The notes under the pieces: model-generated
What the model was told of the DNA's origin: nothing
Databases searched by the model: none
Seen by the model: the letters and a program-made list of their open reading frames with translations, nothing else
Source: Paramacrobiotus metropolitanus
Lineage: Eukaryota > Tardigrada > Eutardigrada > Parachela > Macrobiotidae
Length of the DNA: 64,000 nt
Assembly (NCBI RefSeq): GCF_019649055.1
Contig: NW_026570227.1
Location: 248,001 to 312,000, forward strand
Reading direction: 5' to 3'
Translations under genes and position numbers: made by a program
Shown: one piece after another, positions 34,042-59,929 of the stretch
Layout: each line of letters starts with the position of its first letter
How positions within the stretch are numbered: the first letter of the stretch is position 1

Positions 34042-35727
34042 ATGGATGCTTCGTTACCGGGCGGCAGTCGGGTGGATCAGACGCCGGGCGATGGGAAATC
34101 ATGGACGGTAGTTACTAGTAATACCAGCTATTTTTTCTCGATCTGCCGAACGTATGATGGCTGTTTTTCCAGACCACGTTCAAAGAGTTGGGAATGCAGG
34201 CGACACAGAATTTCGATCCGCTAAAGCAGTTCAAGGCACACTTCTGCGGATTCGCATTCTACAAGTAAGTGTAACTGCCAGTGTCCTTTCTGTCTGTATT
34301 ACCTAAATGCGACATGAGAAACAGCTGATATACTCACTGTACAGTGGGCAACCGAACCGGCAAGTGGAGTTGCACCACTACGTGGCAGCCATCAACGACG
34401 ACGTCTTCCAGTGCGCCGTCTTCGACTCCCCGGACGCCGGCGCCCGGCTGATCGGCATCGAGTACGTGGTCACCGAGAAGATCTTCTGCATGCTGGACGA
34501 GGAAGAGCAGAAGTTCTGGCATAACCACGCGTTTGACGTCAAATCCGGTACAAACATCGTTAATCGCGAATTTCAGTTACCTATTTACCGTACTCTAGGT
34601 TTCTAAGACACAATGATGGACTAAAAAATTAAGAGCATTAAGGGTATTCGAAACTGAAAAAGCGACGGAATACGCGGCGAATGCATGGAGGCGCGAAAGC
34701 TGAGTGAGCGCGCTGGAGATAAGATAACGGGCGCATGTACGTGCCGTTGTATGAAGATTCACGCCATACGCGGCCAGAAAAGCTACTCCGGAGTAGCTAT
34801 TCTGGCCGCGAATCGCGGGAAACGGCGATTTCTCTCATACAGCGTCACGTACACGCGCGCGTTATCTTATCTCCTGCGCGCTCACTCAGCTTTCGCGCCT
34901 CAATGCATGCATTGAGGCGCGAAAGCTGAGTGAGTATGCAGTCGCTTTTTCAGTTTCGAATACCACCATTATTCAGCCAGTCGGTCCGCGGTTCCAAATT
35001 TAATAATAAAATCAACAAGGTGTGCAACAGAAAGCATCTGTCGATTCAGTATGCGTTCAACGAAGTATTTAAGTACTTTTTTTAGTCACATTGATCATTG
35101 GCTATTTAGCAGGCAAGAGTCTCGTCTGTTATCGGAGTTAACCAGACTACCAAGCAGAGTCTGTAGGACTGTGCATATAACTTGGCCCAAAAAAGGGGAA
35201 AACGGCCAGTCGGTCCGCGGTTCGAAACATTTTAATAAGATCATCAACCTGAGAAGCGCTTGTTTTTGCAATACGCGTTAAAACGGAGCATCTACGCTTT
35301 TTATTCTTAAACAGGCAGCTTCATCGCGCCGGGGCTTCCATGGGCCCTGGAGAAAAAGGTCATGGCCGACATGATGCCAACGTACGGGAAAACGTTCATC
35401 CTGTGGCAGACGGATCGCGGCGATAAACTGCCGTTGGGTGCGCTGGTTTAAATGCTTCTCGTATAAACGAAATAACGAAGGTTAGTGCACGCTTTAGGAC
35501 CCCCACAGCTGATGATGACCGCCAACGCCGACGGGCAGTGGCAGGACAAGCTGTTCCGGACACGGGAGCAGCGCCGCGGGGCGCACTACAAGTTCGCCGA
35601 CATTCTGACCAACCGCGAGGAGATGGTGATGCCGCCCATCCATCCCGGCTGCGATCAGTGGGCGACGGATCTGCTGGCGCTGCAGTGCAAGATGGAGCGC
35701 GTCATCAGCGAGGATTACAAGGACTGA
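34042..35727 (+). CDS. DUF1264 / oil-body-associated-protein-like, 5 exons
   Basis: Exons are 34042-34107, 34173-34264, 34345-34547, 35315-35437 and 35498-35727 (714 nt, 237 aa). All junctions are GT-AG and in phase. The protein reads KQFKAHFCGFAFY, GQPNRQVELHHYVAAINDD, VFQCAVFDSP, ARLIGIEYVVTE, then FILWQTDRGDKLPLG and GPPQLMMTANADGQ. These are the conserved blocks of the DUF1264 family, whose plant members (OBAP1) sit on seed oil bodies. The family is known mainly from plants, fungi and bacteria. No signal peptide or membrane segment is seen, so it is likely cytosolic or lipid-droplet-linked. Intron 3 (767 bp) holds a hairpin MITE. A broken paralogue is at 44330-45573. No function in animals is known to me. 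Confidence 0.8.
34643..34964. mobile_element. Hairpin MITE in intron 3 of the DUF1264 gene
   Basis: TIRs GGTATTCGAAACTGAAAAAG (34643) and the complement at 34945-34964 continue to GCGAC and GTCGC. Inside is a second, almost perfect hairpin from GGAGGCGCGAAAGCTGAGTG (34687) to its mirror near 34900, with a centre CTCCGGAG at about 34788. The sequence GAGGCGCGAAAGCTGAGTGA is then repeated once more at 34913. Confidence 0.75.
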
Positions 35728-36199: not shown

Positions 36200-36860
36200 T
36201 TACAGTCGTGTTTCAAGCAAGTCTTTGATACCCGCAACGCTCATGAAGCACAGCCGGTTCTTTTCGTACTTGGTTTCCAAGACACAAATGAACCGGAAGA
36301 GCGCCTCCATGCTGGCTTCGTTCTCCATGCCGACGGTGAAGACTGCGCCCAGTCTATCCATCAGAAACTGGAACAGCCGAATCGCGGCTTCGTGGCGTTT
36401 GTTAACCAGCAAGTCGATGCTGTCGTGGTGCGTGATGGGCGTGCCCAGATGGAACTGCTTGATGTCCTCGTAAACCGACAGATTGTACACCAGATCCAGA
36501 TCCTCCACCGGTTGCACGCGTCGCACCTTCTGCTCGCTCTCCACTAAATGGATGCGCTGCCGGCCGCCGTGGACCGGCTCGAGATTCCGCCAGAAATCGC
36601 TGGACATGATGACGATCATCGGGTTGTTGACGCCCAACAGACCGAGAGAAGTGATGGGCAGATCGATGCGGTCGTTGCCGAAGAAATGAGATCCTTGGGA
36701 TTTCCTTCGTTGGTCATCGAGACGAGTAACTCGAGCATCTCCTCCGGAGTCCATCCACGCAGTCCGATTGAGTCCACAAAGTCGCTGACTTGGATGATAT
36801 CCACGGTTCCATCTGTCGTTAACATCCTAACACCGAAAAGCCTAAAGCGAAAATTTTTAA
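36200..36860 (-). pseudogene. P-loop/coiled-coil family, C-terminal fragment
   Basis: Corresponds to about the last 190 residues of the intact gene at 58796-59929. It shares DGTVDIIQV..FVDSIGL.GWT, LGLLGVNNPM, VIMSS.FW.NLEP, TPITHHD, and MEALFRFI.V.E.KYEK. A one-base deletion near 36687 shifts the frame just before the FGNDRI block. The part with the Walker A motif and coiled coil is missing; a TTAG acceptor-like site sits right before the preserved start, so it may once have been a separate exon. Clearly diverged from the intact copy and probably dead. Confidence 0.75.
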
Positions 36861-37860: not shown

Positions 37861-40797
37861 ATGGGGAACAGCAATTCCGTTACGGACGACACAGTGCAGC
37901 ACATTGGCCGTACTATGCAGTATCGCTACTCTCATGTAGATGATTTCATTGGAAAGGGTTCCTACGGCATTGTCTACAAAGCGAAAGTTGTCAAGCGTGG
38001 TGATTATGCTGGGGACGATTTTGTTGCTGTTAAAGTGATGCAGATCTGTATTACTTCCGAAGCACTTGCTGACCACGACAATTTGGAGGAAGCCGTGAGA
38101 AAATTAAAGAAACTTATTGCGCTCTCTCACGAAAATCTTGTAAAGTATCATAAAATTTCAATCACAAAAGTTCGCGTCGGAGCCACCGTCGAGCTAGCAA
38201 TGGACTACCATGAAGGTAAGGCAACTTTTGACCTGAGAATTCTTCTAAACGCATTAGTTTGGCTTAAGGAAAATTGCCCGGTATATGGCGCTTAAAGTGG
38301 TATACAATACTACTACACATACGCTAAAACTTTCGCTTTCGTGTACTCTGATTTCCAGAATCACTTTTTTGTAATACTCGTACTTTATGTGGTGCAAATT
38401 GATTTGTATACATTGTTTTGAAAACCGTGTGCGCGCGCAACATCCGGTTGCCGAGATATGGCGAACAAAAATGCACAAGTTTAAATGCATTGTCGCGTAT
38501 CAAAGTCTGGATATTACCCGATCTTGTTGAAACTTTGCGATAAAGACAAATGGCCTTATATTCGAAAGTGAACTAATTTGAGATTCATAGTACTTTCCCA
38601 TAATTTTTAAATGGATTTTTAATTTTTTGAAATGTGGTTTAAATTCGAAAAAAAATGCTATGAATCTGATAATAATGGTGCCATTTCGACTTTAAGGGTA
38701 TGTGTCTTTTACCGCAAAGTTTCAAGAAGTTCGGGTAATAACCAGACATTCGATACGCGACAACGCATTTAAATTTGTCACCCATTTTATTTCGCCATAT
38801 CTCGGCAATCGAATGTTGCGCGCGCAAACGGATTGCAGAGCAACGTATACAAATCAATTCTGCTTTAACGACATAAAGTATTACAAAAAAGTGATTCAGA
38901 GTGCCCGGAAGTGAAAGTTTAAGCGTATGTATAGTAGTATTGTATACCATTTTAAGCACCATATACCGGGCGATTTCCCTTACCTACTACAAAGAAAATA
39001 TTTCAGGGGACCTCGGGAAGTTTTTGCGGGAAGCCAGGCACAACCGCGCCCTCTTGAGAAGTTATATGAAAGTTTCCCAGCTTGTGACGTGTATAGCCCG
39101 AGGACTGGAGTTCCTCCATGCGAATCTCATAATTCATGGAGATCTTAAACCAGGAAACGTTCTTGTGGCGATCTCGGAGCGCGGTCGCAGGAATTTGTTG
39201 ATCAGTGACCTAGATGACATCGTTCACATGCAAGGTAATGCAACATGTTCGGCAGACCTTGCGCAATTACGCGGCACCAAGCGCTACATGTCGCCGGAAA
39301 TGCTGAGAAAATTTTCCCAAATATCAACCGAATCACCGGGTCGGAAGACTGACATCTGGAGTCTTGGTTGCATAATTCTGGAGATGGCCGAGATATCCTG
39401 TGGTGTTCAGAGGAAACAGCTCGTGAAAGACGGGGATGTTGTTGAAGATGATCTTACCGATGACCAGTACGTCATCAAGATTATAGACGGTTACGTGCCC
39501 TTTGTTAGCAACGACATTGCAGGGGAATTAGCTAGTCCTATCCGGAAATGTCTGCAGCCAGTGGCTGCAGAAAGAATATGCGCGAAAGAAGTAGGGCTTG
39601 CGCTTTCGAAAAAACAAGTTATATTACTTTTTAATGACCGCTCTGAATTTGACCGCACTTTTTTGATATTGTTCGATCCTGTGACTGGTTGCTTCAAGAT
39701 TGAAAAATTTGATAATGCCCCAGCATCCTTACGCAACCGCAGAAGCGAAATCAGAATACATCACGGTCAACTAGGAGAGGTAGAAAGGATATTCGAAGTC
39801 TGTTCAAATTCCTCCAACGGTAGACGCACTGGCGCGTCTAGGGGGTCGCCAGAGCAGCCATGGCCCCCCGTAACCTGGACGAGATCGAGAGAATACCCTT
39901 TTGTGATCGGGACCCTTTCGTGTGAGTTCTCTGGCTCCCCCTCCGAAACCCGCCTACATTCGCCACAGGGTAGACTTTCGATCTTTTTTCTTTGGAATCT
40001 GAGCAAAGAAACATGGCGCGAGATAATACTTCCTTCGGACGTGTGCCTTGCAAAAAGGCTGATCTTGATTAACAACAAGTGTTATTACTGGAACTGGGAT
40101 GCCCACTTTATGAAAATGGACATAAAATCTGGCACAACTGCTGCTCTGGATAATGGTACAACAGCAATGAGGTAAGTAAAACGCTATAAAAACTGATCTT
40201 CTTTTACAGTGGACGCACTGGGTTTGGGTTCTATCGTATTTTTTCTACAGGGTTGAATTAGGTTCGTCCACTGCATTAGCAATAACAAAATGTGGCGAGC
40301 ACATATATTATGCTACTGCGTCGACATTGTGCGGGTACGATACGATGGCCGACAAATGGGAAGAACCGCGCAAACTGCCCGAGTGGCGAACAAAGTTTGC
40401 AATGGGCGTGGTAAACGGCTACATTTACATTATCAGTGGGCGTAGCTATATGCGGGGCAGCTATATGGCCATTGCTGACTGCATCCGTCTGCAAGTGGGT
40501 ACTGGCTCGTGGGAAGAGATACAACCACTGGGACGGCCGAGGTATGACCATTCTGCCTGCATTGTCCACGACCGAATATTCGTTTGCGGGGGCAAGCATT
40601 CTGAAACAGAGCACGCGCTGGAAATCGAGGTTTACGACACGACACTTTGCACAGGATGGTCGACCGTCGCACTGCTGCCAAAAGACATGCAGCTCTTGTC
40701 ACAGCTGGCGTCAGAATGCACTGATTATTGTGGCATAGGCGCCATGACGCTAGCTCTGGATGACGATATTGATCCGAATACCGCTCGTACTCAATGA
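37861..40797 (+). CDS. Protein kinase-Kelch fusion, 3 exons
   Basis: Exons are 37861-38215, 39007-40171 and 40251-40797 (2067 nt, 688 aa), with phases 1 and 2 kept. The N-terminal half is a kinase: glycine loop GKGSYG at 31-36, VAVK Lys at 58, catalytic loop IIHGDLKPGNVLV with Asp 164, SDLDD in place of DFG (Asp 186), YMSPE in place of APE, and DIWSLGCIILEM. The HRD Arg is Gly here. The main ATP- and metal-binding residues are present, so activity is possible. The C-terminal half has Kelch-type blades, for example YDTMADKWEEPRKLPEW, VVNGYIYIISG and YDHSACIVHDRIFVCGG. MGNSNS at the start allows N-myristoylation. Intron 1 carries foldback element X copy 2. A kinase joined to Kelch repeats is uncommon; it suggests a kinase with its own substrate adaptor. 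An open frame runs about 180 nt past the stop in another frame, so the C-terminus is not certain. Confidence 0.8.
38267..38980. mobile_element. Long foldback element X, copy 2
   Basis: Inverted ends AGGAAAATTGCCCGGTATAT and ATATACCGGGCGATTTCCCT (outermost right) with TA on both sides (38265-38266, 38981-38982). Arms pair through GTGGTATACAATACTACTA and the GCGCGCAACAT core shared with copy 1. It lies wholly in intron 1 of the kinase-Kelch gene. Confidence 0.75.
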
Positions 40798-44329: not shown

Positions 44330-45573
44330 ATGGATGCTTCGTTACCGGGTGGGAGTCGGGTGGATCGGACGCCGGGCCGATGGGAGATCGTGAACGATAG
44401 TTAATGGTAACTTAATACCTGCTATTGTTTCTCGAGTTATTGAACGTGCGATGGCTACCTATTTTTCCAGACCAGTTGGGAAGGCAGGCGACACAGAACT
44501 TCGACTCACTCAAACAGTTTAAAGCCCACTTTTGCGGGTTTGCGTTCTACAAGTAGGCTCAGTTAACAGTACCTTTGCCTATTCGCTTTATATGAGAAAT
44601 AAAAAGCAGTTGATGTTATACAGTGGACAACCGAACCGGCAAGTGGAGCTGCACCATTACGTGGCGGCCATCAACGACGACGTCTTCCAGTGCGCCGTCT
44701 TCGACTCCCCGAACGCCGGCGCCCGGCTTATCGGCATCGAGTACGTGGTCACCGAGAAGATCTGCAAGCTGGACGAGGAAGAGCAGAAGTTCTGGCACAA
44801 CCATGCTTTTGATGTCAAATCAGGTAATAAAAACAGACAGTTTATGAACTCCGGACAGTTTTGAAAGTTTAGTTTATGAACTCCTTTAACTGTACGCTTT
44901 TGACGTATGAGGTACAATGTAGGAGTGAAAACCAGTGACATTTAATTTAGTAAGCTAGATTCTCGTTCATTATCGGAATTGACCAAGCTATGATGTACCT
45001 ATGACCAAAGATAATGGAATGTGCCGGTTGGTCCGCGGTTCAAAAAATTTTATACAGAGAAACTCTACAAACACATTTTATGCCGTAAGCCATCATAGAA
45101 ACGTTTGTTGACGCACTATGCGTTAAAACAAAGCACTTACGTTTTTTTGCTCTTATATAGGCAGTTTCATCGCGCGTGGGCTCCCGTGGGCGCTGGAGAA
45201 AAAGGTCATGGCCGACATGATGCCGACGTACGGGAAGACGTTCATCCTGTGGCAGACGGATCGCGGCGATAAACTGCCTTTGGGTGGGATGGTCTAAACG
45301 ATCCTCGTGTGAATGGAATAACAAAGGCTAATGTACATTTTAGGGCCCCCGCAACTGATGATGACCGCCAACGCCGACGGTCAATGGCAGGACAAGCTCT
45401 TCCGGACACGGGAGCAGCGCCGTGGAGCGCACTACAAGTTCGCCGACATTCTGACCAACCGCGAGGAGATGGTGATGCCGCCTATCCATCCCGGCTGCGA
45501 CCAGTGGGCGACGGATTTATAAGCGCTGCAATGCAAGATGGAGCACGTCATTAGCGAGGATTACAAAGAGTGA
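44330..45573 (+). pseudogene. DUF1264 family paralogue, decayed
   Basis: Copy of the gene at 34042 with the same five-exon layout (44330-44395, 44471-44552, 44624-44823, 45161-45283, 45344-45573). Lesions: an extra base in exon 1 shifts the frame and the first GT donor has become GA; exon 2 lacks 12 bases; a CTG codon of exon 5 is now TAA at 45520-45522. Exons 3 and 4 remain almost unchanged at protein level (HHYVAAINDDVFQ). The intron MITE of the other copy is absent here. Probably recently silenced. Confidence 0.8.
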
Positions 45574-58795: not shown

Positions 58796-59929
58796 ATGGA
58801 AAAAATAGTTTCACTGATACTTCCCGTTGCCATCGACGCTATTCGATCAATCATGGGCGGAGGGGGTTCGAGAGAGGTAGATGTGGGGGCTATCACGCGT
58901 CCCCTGCAAGAAGAAATGGCACGCCGCGAACAGGAATACCAAACGCAACGCCAGCGCGACAACGAGTTCTTCCAGCAGCGCTTCCAACAGCTGACGAGCA
59001 CCAACGCGGCCGAACGACAGCGTCTGCAGCAGGATTTCCAGCGCGAAAAAGAACATCGCGACCGTGAACGTCAAGCCGAACAGAAGCGTCACGATGAGGA
59101 ACTACAGCAACTGCGACAGGCGATGAAAGTCAGCCAGGAGGAGGTGCAGAAGGTCAACGATCAACTGCAGCGTCCCATCAAGGATCGCGAGGAGAAGATG
59201 GAATTCGTCAACAATCTGAAATTGCCGATTCGCCAGACGGATTCCCTGTTGTTGCTGGGTCCGAAAGGACTGGGAAAAAGCACCTTCTTGTGGTTGCTGA
59301 ACAAAGGACCCAAGCCGGAACAGTCACTCTTGGACGGGACGGTGGAATTCCTGCATGTCAACGGATTCGTGGACTCCATCGGACTGAACGGATGGACGCA
59401 GGAGGAACTGCTGAAACTGCTGGTCTTGATGATCTACGACGGGATCCCCAAGGACCTCATCATCTTCGCCAACGACCGCATCTATCAGCCCATCTTGACG
59501 CTGGGTCTGCTGGGCGTCAATAACCCCATGAGCGTCATAATGTCCAGTGTGTTCTGGAATAACCTCGAGCCGGAGGACGGTAATGAACCTCTGATTCACC
59601 TGAAGGACGACGACAAGGGCGTACGTCGCGTGGATCACTTGGGCCGCGTGTACAATCTGAAGGTGTATGAGAAGATCATGAAGCACCAGTTAGGTACCTT
59701 GCCCATCACCCATCATGACGACCTGGAAGAACTGGTGGAGAAGCGAGAAAAAGCCGGGATTCAGCCGTTCCGCTTTATGATGGACGACCTGGGGCAGCAG
59801 TTCCACGTGGAGATGGACAACTCGCCCAACATGGAGGCGCTCTTCCGCTTCATCTACATCTACGAGAAGAAGTACGCGAAGGATCGACTGAAATTCATGA
59901 ATAACGCCTCGCTGCAGGACTTCAAATGA
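58796..59929 (+). CDS. P-loop NTPase with coiled coil, intact single-exon gene
   Basis: 377 residues, no intron. Residues 1-20 are hydrophobic (IVSLILPVAIDAI), followed by GGGGS. Residues about 35-130 are a charged coiled coil (QQRFQQLTSTNAAERQRLQQ). Walker A is GPKGLGKST at 155-163. Candidate switch motifs follow: DGTVEFLHV, FVDSIGLNGW, and FANDR at the place of the NKxD guanine motif of GTPases. The C-terminal 180 residues contain conserved TLPITHHDDLEELVEK and MEALFRFIYIYEKKY. The P-loop and the later blocks suggest a GTPase-like fold, but I cannot place it in a named family. Broken relatives lie at 36200, 42951 and 43663, so the family has expanded locally. Possibly membrane-linked through its N-terminus. 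Confidence 0.75.
   Translation: MEKIVSLILPVAIDAIRSIMGGGGSREVDVGAITRPLQEEMARREQEYQTQRQRDNEFFQQRFQQLTSTNAAERQRLQQDFQREKEHRDRERQAEQKRHDEELQQLRQAMKVSQEEVQKVNDQLQRPIKDREEKMEFVNNLKLPIRQTDSLLLLGPKGLGKSTFLWLLNKGPKPEQSLLDGTVEFLHVNGFVDSIGLNGWTQEELLKLLVLMIYDGIPKDLIIFANDRIYQPILTLGLLGVNNPMSVIMSSVFWNNLEPEDGNEPLIHLKDDDKGVRRVDHLGRVYNLKVYEKIMKHQLGTLPITHHDDLEELVEKREKAGIQPFRFMMDDLGQQFHVEMDNSPNMEALFRFIYIYEKKYAKDRLKFMNNASLQDFK

What the first reader, a model, noticed from the sequence alone, without database searches (positions are those of the whole stretch)
34042..35727. DUF1264/oil-body-associated-type protein in an animal
The five-exon gene keeps the main blocks of a family known mainly from plants, fungi and bacteria. 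In plants the protein is linked to oil bodies of desiccation-tolerant seeds, which is suggestive for a tardigrade. Introns show it is a resident gene, but its origin could be ancient transfer.
Basis: partly seen in the sequence, partly recalled or inferred. Interest (0 to 1): 0.75.

Follow-up and report, generated by a model that had tools for sequence, protein, structure and literature searches.

The report
Seed-oil-body-type gene in a tardigrade
This animal genome, which looks like that of a water bear, carries a tandem pair of genes for a protein family best known from the oil droplets of plant seeds and from bacteria; selection has preserved them, but where they came from and whether they act in drying is not yet shown.

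Summary
Window 34042-35727 (+) encodes a five-exon, 237-aa protein with GT-AG introns that matches Pfam DUF1264 (PF06884) at 202 bits. It looks damaged at first, but with slightly shifted, inferred splice sites its frame stays open to a stop that removes only the last 17 residues. Between the copies dN is 0.024 and dS 0.436, so both were long under purifying selection. The genome fits the tardigrade Paramacrobiotus metropolitanus. The protein has no lipobox, unlike 71 of 80 bacterial relatives. In a tree it lies outside 91 bacterial rows, on a branch so long that its place is unsafe. No plant, fungal or other animal sequence could be compared, so transfer versus inheritance is unresolved. Codon bias resembles that of actin-family exons and hints at strong expression, with caveats. 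The lipid-droplet role is carried over from plant OBAP1 by inference; a bacterial relative's predicted fold matched no solved structure. Verdict: a real new member of a known family with an interesting, untested link to drying.

The parts
34042..34107 (+). copy 1 exon 1 (aa 1-22)
   Evidence: G16 conserved with bacteria
34173..34264 (+). copy 1 exon 2
34345..34547 (+). copy 1 exon 3, core of DUF1264
   Evidence: (104.3 bits for this stretch alone)
35315..35437 (+). copy 1 exon 4
35498..35727 (+). copy 1 exon 5 with stop
44330..44389 (+). copy 2 exon 1, using a shifted donor (GTGAAC)
   Evidence: splice site inferred, no transcript seen
44476..44552 (+). copy 2 exon 2, using a shifted acceptor
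   Evidence: splice site inferred
44624..44823 (+). copy 2 exon 3
45161..45283 (+). copy 2 exon 4
45344..45522 (+). copy 2 exon 5, ending at a TAA (45520-45522) at the codon homologous to residue 221 of copy 1

Best explanation
A resident, selectively maintained tandem pair of DUF1264/OBAP genes in a tardigrade (most likely Paramacrobiotus metropolitanus). Each encodes a soluble protein without export signal, 237 residues for copy 1 and 212 for copy 2 under the inferred splicing. Shown: gene structure of copy 1, family, duplication, purifying selection between the copies, absence of a lipobox or hydrophobic stretch, codon bias. Inferred: the protein is cytosolic and works like plant OBAP1, attaching peripherally to the surface of lipid droplets (probably through partner proteins) and keeping them small and separate; it is abundant, perhaps in preparation for drying. 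Its origin is most likely old (an old acquisition, or a eukaryotic family kept here and lost elsewhere) rather than a recent transfer from the bacteria sampled.
For: DUF1264 202.2 bits; copy 2 189.1 bits. NG86 dN 0.024 and dS 0.436 over 212 codons, 203 of 212 residues identical. 45 of 61 columns conserved at 95% or more in 92 bacterial proteins are kept. No lipobox in the tardigrade protein, maximum KD19 1.07; 71 of 80 bacterial proteins have a loose lipobox-like motif, shuffled mean 11.7. Plant OBAPs lack hydrophobic motifs and are 210-247 aa in the table seen (PMC11876164, passages). GC3 0.82 against introns 0.40-0.46; 8 actin-family exons 0.58-1.00, 12 kinase exons 0.47-0.76. Lipid droplets are seen in hydrated and dried cells of another tardigrade (PMC11156355, passages).
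Against: No transcript, localisation or drying data were reachable. The protein changes 16 of the 61 columns, including H50, H149 and T150, each invariant in all 92 bacterial proteins, so a shared activity is not assured. Bacterial members look largely exported, so lipid droplets cannot be the family's general site, though only 16 of 80 have a strongly hydrophobic N-terminal stretch. PMC11876164 (passage) says the lack of hydrophobic motifs argues against an important structural role of OBAPs. Six tubulin exons have GC3 of only 0.46-0.65, so high GC3 is not a firm sign of expression and could be a relic of a GC-rich donor. Copy 2 needs shifted splice sites, lacks 17 C-terminal residues and may have lost its function recently. 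The tree branch of 5.54 makes the tardigrade position prone to artefact.
Confidence: 0.5

Rival explanations
1. Horizontal transfer from a non-animal eukaryote (fungus, moss, alga or oomycete) into the Paramacrobiotus or tardigrade lineage, followed by duplication. It could be one of the 112 genes that Hara et al. classed as transferred after the split from Hypsibioidea.
For: The protein lies outside the bacterial sample and lacks the lipobox common in bacteria. Hara et al. report 112 such genes, over-represented among genes differing between their 0 h and 2 d samples (PMC8277472, passages). PF06884 appears in a table in the section on yeasts and filamentous fungi (PMC2409186, passage) and a DUF1264 gene is expressed in the fungus Beauveria bassiana (PMC10545715, passage). 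Precedent: a hemerythrin linked to oil bodies and dehydration in moss groups with tardigrade and fungal homologues, and tardigrades reportedly got theirs from fungi (PMC5908804, passages).
Against: No eukaryotic relative could be compared; table S4 with the 112 genes could not be read, so membership is unknown. The copies already differ by dS about 0.44, so a transfer before the duplication is not very recent.
Confidence: 0.4
2. Vertical inheritance: an ancient eukaryotic DUF1264 family lost in most animals and kept in this lineage.
For: The family occurs in plants, algae and fungi (passages); four introns with normal splice sites; long separate branch.
Against: I recall few or no animal members of the family, but could not test this.
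Confidence: 0.35
3. Ancient transfer from bacteria, with loss of the signal sequence and gain of introns.
For: Bacterial relatives reach 46% identity, the best in Verrucomicrobiota; the gene is widespread in bacteria (555 of 597 pattern matches, a capped list) and present on 45 of 72,556 plasmid records.
Against: Outside all 91 bacterial rows of the tree, though on a very long branch; patchy in Verrucomicrobiota, 4 of 288 genomes, the centre genome included.
Confidence: 0.2
4. The protein is a general stress or redox protein, not a lipid-droplet protein.
For: In 4 of 12 plasmid loci looked at (of 45 records) the bacterial gene lies near general-stress, DUF892, ferritin-like or manganese-catalase genes, and in 2 of 12 near sulfur-handling genes. 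H64, E92, W111, H112 and H114 are invariant in 92 of 92 bacterial proteins and kept here and could form a site.
Against: In 138 neighbouring ORFs of 38 other loci no family is in more than 4; Mn catalase 2, Ferritin_2 2 (only 25 of 168 families were shown and there was no background control, so this is inconclusive). No solved fold supports an enzyme.
Confidence: 0.3

Closest known systems
Plant OBAP1/OBAP2 (oil body associated proteins, DUF1264)
   Same: Same Pfam family by name; similar length (210-247 aa in the table seen); no hydrophobic anchor.
   Different: Animal host; no oil-body or seed-maturation evidence; subfamily not determinable because no plant sequence was available.
Bacterial 'OBAP family protein' (PF06884), e.g. 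L018 and the plasmid loci
   Same: About 31-46% identity depending on the aligner and the row; 45 of 61 near-invariant columns kept.
   Different: 71 of 80 bacterial ones have a lipobox-like motif; the bacterial ones were read as single open frames without introns; the tardigrade pair is outside their tree.
[quoted passage not shown]
   Same: Same genome, by inference; multiple copies; non-animal-type family.
   Different: Their transfer was tested by trees with eukaryotes; that of DUF1264 is untested.
Tardigrade hemerythrin, reportedly from fungi, related to an oil-body-linked moss gene (PMC5908804, passages)
   Same: A family with an oil-body and dehydration link in plants, found in tardigrades.
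   Different: Unrelated protein family; donor supported by a tree there, not here.

Membership tests
DUF1264 (Pfam PF06884) | score above the curated cut-off of 25 bits over most of the model | tested here: met
   202.2 bits, model 1-161 of 171; copy 2 189.1 bits
DUF1264 (Pfam PF06884) | conserved residues of the family | tested here: met
   45 of 61 columns at 95% or more in 92 bacterial proteins kept, 16 changed
Plant-type OBAP | soluble protein without hydrophobic motif or export signal | tested here: met
   maximum KD19 1.07; no lipobox; no dedicated signal-peptide predictor was run
Plant-type OBAP | localisation on the oil-body surface | not testable with these tools
   needs imaging or droplet proteomics
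Plant-type OBAP | groups with plant subfamily 1 or 2 in a tree | not testable with these tools
   no plant sequences in the collections searched
Bacterial OBAP with lipoprotein signal | N-terminal lipobox | tested here: not met
   none in the tardigrade protein against 71 of 80 bacterial proteins, shuffled mean 11.7
Horizontally transferred gene | nests inside a non-animal clade with support | tested here: inconclusive
   outside all 91 bacterial rows on a branch of 5.54; eukaryotes not sampled
Resident animal gene, not contamination | spliceosomal introns, among other eukaryotic genes and host repeats on a long contig | tested here: met
   introns; contig C7 of 2,892,721 bases; kinase and Kelch ORFs between the copies; a repeat of this genome in intron 3

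The most novel reading that the evidence does not exclude
A drying-tolerant animal took over a seed-type oil-body protein by horizontal transfer, duplicated it, and uses it at high abundance to keep lipid droplets from fusing during anhydrobiosis, a convergence with desiccation-tolerant seeds.
Probability: 0.18. Interest if true: 0.75.

Novelty: new member of a known kind. Interest (0 to 1): 0.42.

Why it matters
Lipid-droplet integrity during drying is, as far as I recall, a little-studied side of anhydrobiosis; most attention goes to disordered proteins and trehalose. A seed-type droplet protein kept as two copies under strong selection in a tardigrade gives a concrete gene to test. If it was transferred, it would join TPS-TPP and hemerythrin as genes of non-animal type kept in tardigrades.

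Tried and rejected
A single-protein scan of genome contigs found no relative because its patterns were strict; the alignment-based scan then worked. Viral contigs gave no relative (one DNA pattern gave 6 stretches that tblastn showed to be chance). No phage record matched, no PHROG, no PDB sequence at E up to 1, no NCBIfam model at E up to 1.

Copy 2 was first taken for a pseudogene (note); the codon comparison and the splice-site check reversed this. The end that I noted (45535) was wrong, and one search ran ten bases past the stop; one search gives 45522 and GC3 0.783 (0.778 before).

Fold: the AlphaFold model of the bacterial relative L018 (mean pLDDT 85.4) gave no Foldseek match at E 0.001 or better and a best VIA Z of 2.9 among 994 chains; this neither shows a new fold nor excludes known ones.

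Bacterial neighbourhood: a stress-island link in 4 of 12 plasmid loci could not be generalised. In one search a script chose 160 ORFs at 40 of the 80 loci and printed 150; I gave 138 from 38 loci. One search showed 25 of 168 families; no control was run.

Codon bias: GC3 was read for 8 of 32 actin, 6 of 27 tubulin and 12 of 136 kinase matches, the best-scoring ones; the 8 actin exons come from 6 contigs; 3 of 6 tubulin and 5 of 12 kinase stretches hold stops.

Literature: searches (40 of 50 papers listed; 1 of 1; 20 of 1,152; 15 of 15; 8 of 167; 10 of 37) listed no paper whose title or abstract start reports DUF1264/OBAP in an animal; the one with a beetle in its title concerns a fungal gene. 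The library is open-access only. The main OBAP1 paper is not held; what I say of it beyond quoted passages is recalled.

Full report
What is there. Five exons at 34042-34107, 34173-34264, 34345-34547, 35315-35437 and 35498-35727 join in frame to 237 codons plus a stop, and all four introns are GT..AG. Intron phases are 0, 2, 1, 1. The protein (27.1 kDa, pI 5.4) matches one Pfam family, DUF1264, with 202.2 bits against a cut-off of 25.

Which genome. The window is bases 248001-312000 of contig C7 (2,892,721 bases) in an assembly of 169,799,020 bases in 533 contigs. The published Paramacrobiotus sp. TYO assembly has 170,483,395 bases in 684 scaffolds and 43.46% GC (PMC8277472, passages); the window has 43.4% GC. 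That paper describes three TPS-TPP genes; I find TPS-domain matches on three contigs, 7 matches in all. The scaffold numbers differ. I take the source to be this tardigrade, P. metropolitanus, by inference (the equation of strain TYO with that name is recalled).

A second copy. The family search listed four exon matches, two of them 10 kb downstream. The copies share their exon layout. Copy 2 has a one-base gain in exon 1, a changed donor, a ten-base loss in exon 2, a three-base loss in exon 3 and a TAA near its end. The first two length changes together keep the frame. With a donor seven bases upstream and an acceptor five bases downstream, both with the usual GT and AG, the product is a 212-residue protein with 189.1 bits to DUF1264. 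These splice sites are inferred; no transcript was available. Over 212 aligned codons 203 residues are identical; NG86 gives dN 0.024 and dS 0.436, LWL85 0.024 and 0.378, YN00 0.022 and 0.510. A ratio near 0.05 means that neither copy can have drifted freely for most of the time since the duplication; a recent loss of function in copy 2 remains possible.

Relatives. tblastn finds 45 plasmid records of 72,556 and no phage record. In that phylum 4 of 288 genomes have a match, the genome of L018 included. A maximum-likelihood tree of 93 rows (two tardigrade copies and 91 bacterial rows; L007 of the plasmid set was left out and rows over 275 aa were cut to their last 262) puts the tardigrade pair outside all bacteria on a branch of 5.54. 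The root is a midpoint, no eukaryote is included, and so long a branch can be misplaced, so this argues only weakly, against a recent donor among the bacteria sampled.

Protein features. Of 80 bacterial relatives 71 have a loose lipobox-like motif in the first 75 residues (shuffled mean 11.7) and 48 a strict one, but only 16 of 80 have a strongly hydrophobic 19-residue stretch starting before residue 60. The tardigrade protein has no such motif and a maximum hydropathy of 1.07. Of 61 columns conserved at 95% or more in 92 bacterial proteins, 45 are kept, including H63, H64, E92, W111, H112, H114 and K146; 16 differ, including H50 to A and H149 to I. The predicted fold of relative L018 (pLDDT 85.4) has no significant match among solved structures.

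Codon bias. Copy 1 has GC3 0.82 and copy 2 0.78, while their introns have 0.35-0.46 GC and two flanking stretches 0.36-0.41. Eight actin-family exons range from 0.58 to 1.00, six tubulin exons from 0.46 to 0.65, twelve kinase exons from 0.47 to 0.76; three other ORFs of the window have 0.49-0.61. This fits strong expression, but the tubulin values speak against a simple rule and a GC-rich ancestor is an alternative.

Function. In plants the family is linked to oil bodies. Passages say that OBAPs lack hydrophobic motifs, that their role is poorly understood and perhaps not structural, and that OBAP1 is needed to keep oil-body structure and for germination (PMC11876164); that obap1a mutants have few, big, irregular oil bodies (PMC11478449; related passage in PMC6366027). 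A DUF1264 protein is listed among spots that changed in aged rapeseed (PMC4340179, passage). Lipid droplets persist in dried cells of the tardigrade Ramazzottius varieornatus (PMC11156355, passages). Carrying the plant role over to this tardigrade is inference. Bacterial neighbourhoods hint at stress biology in 4 of 12 plasmid loci; a survey of 138 neighbours at 38 other loci was inconclusive.

Origin. Hara et al. counted 112 genes acquired after the split from Hypsibioidea and found them enriched among genes differing between their 0 h and 2 d samples (PMC8277472, passages). Whether DUF1264 is among them could not be read. There is a precedent for a family linked to oil bodies and dehydration: hemerythrin, reportedly taken by tardigrades from fungi (PMC5908804, passages). 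Transfer from a eukaryote, ancient transfer from bacteria, and inheritance with loss elsewhere all remain open.

Verdict. The finding is real and a little richer than described (two maintained copies). Its excitement rests on two untested claims, foreign origin and a role in drying, so I rate it moderate.

Noticed in passing
window 34643-34964: A foldback repeat (outer arms 31 nt, 94% complementary; inner arms 74 nt, 92%) sits in intron 3 of copy 1 and recurs in the genome (24 matches listed, self and opposite-strand matches included): MITE-like.
   Followed up: partly
   Followed up: partly
window 36241-36813 and 59333-59900: Two stretches 69% alike in opposite orientation, the first with a 208-aa open frame and no Pfam match.
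   Followed up: no
window 38895-40794: A protein-kinase ORF followed by a Kelch-repeat ORF between the two DUF1264 copies.
   Followed up: no
L015 and L016: In Azospirillum and Pseudomonas fluorescens plasmids the DUF1264 gene lies among sulfur-handling genes (YeeE/YedE, TauE, ArsR, MBL-fold, Dsb or rhodanese genes). Together with L013, whose neighbours are not of that kind, they form a distinct long-branched group.
   Followed up: no
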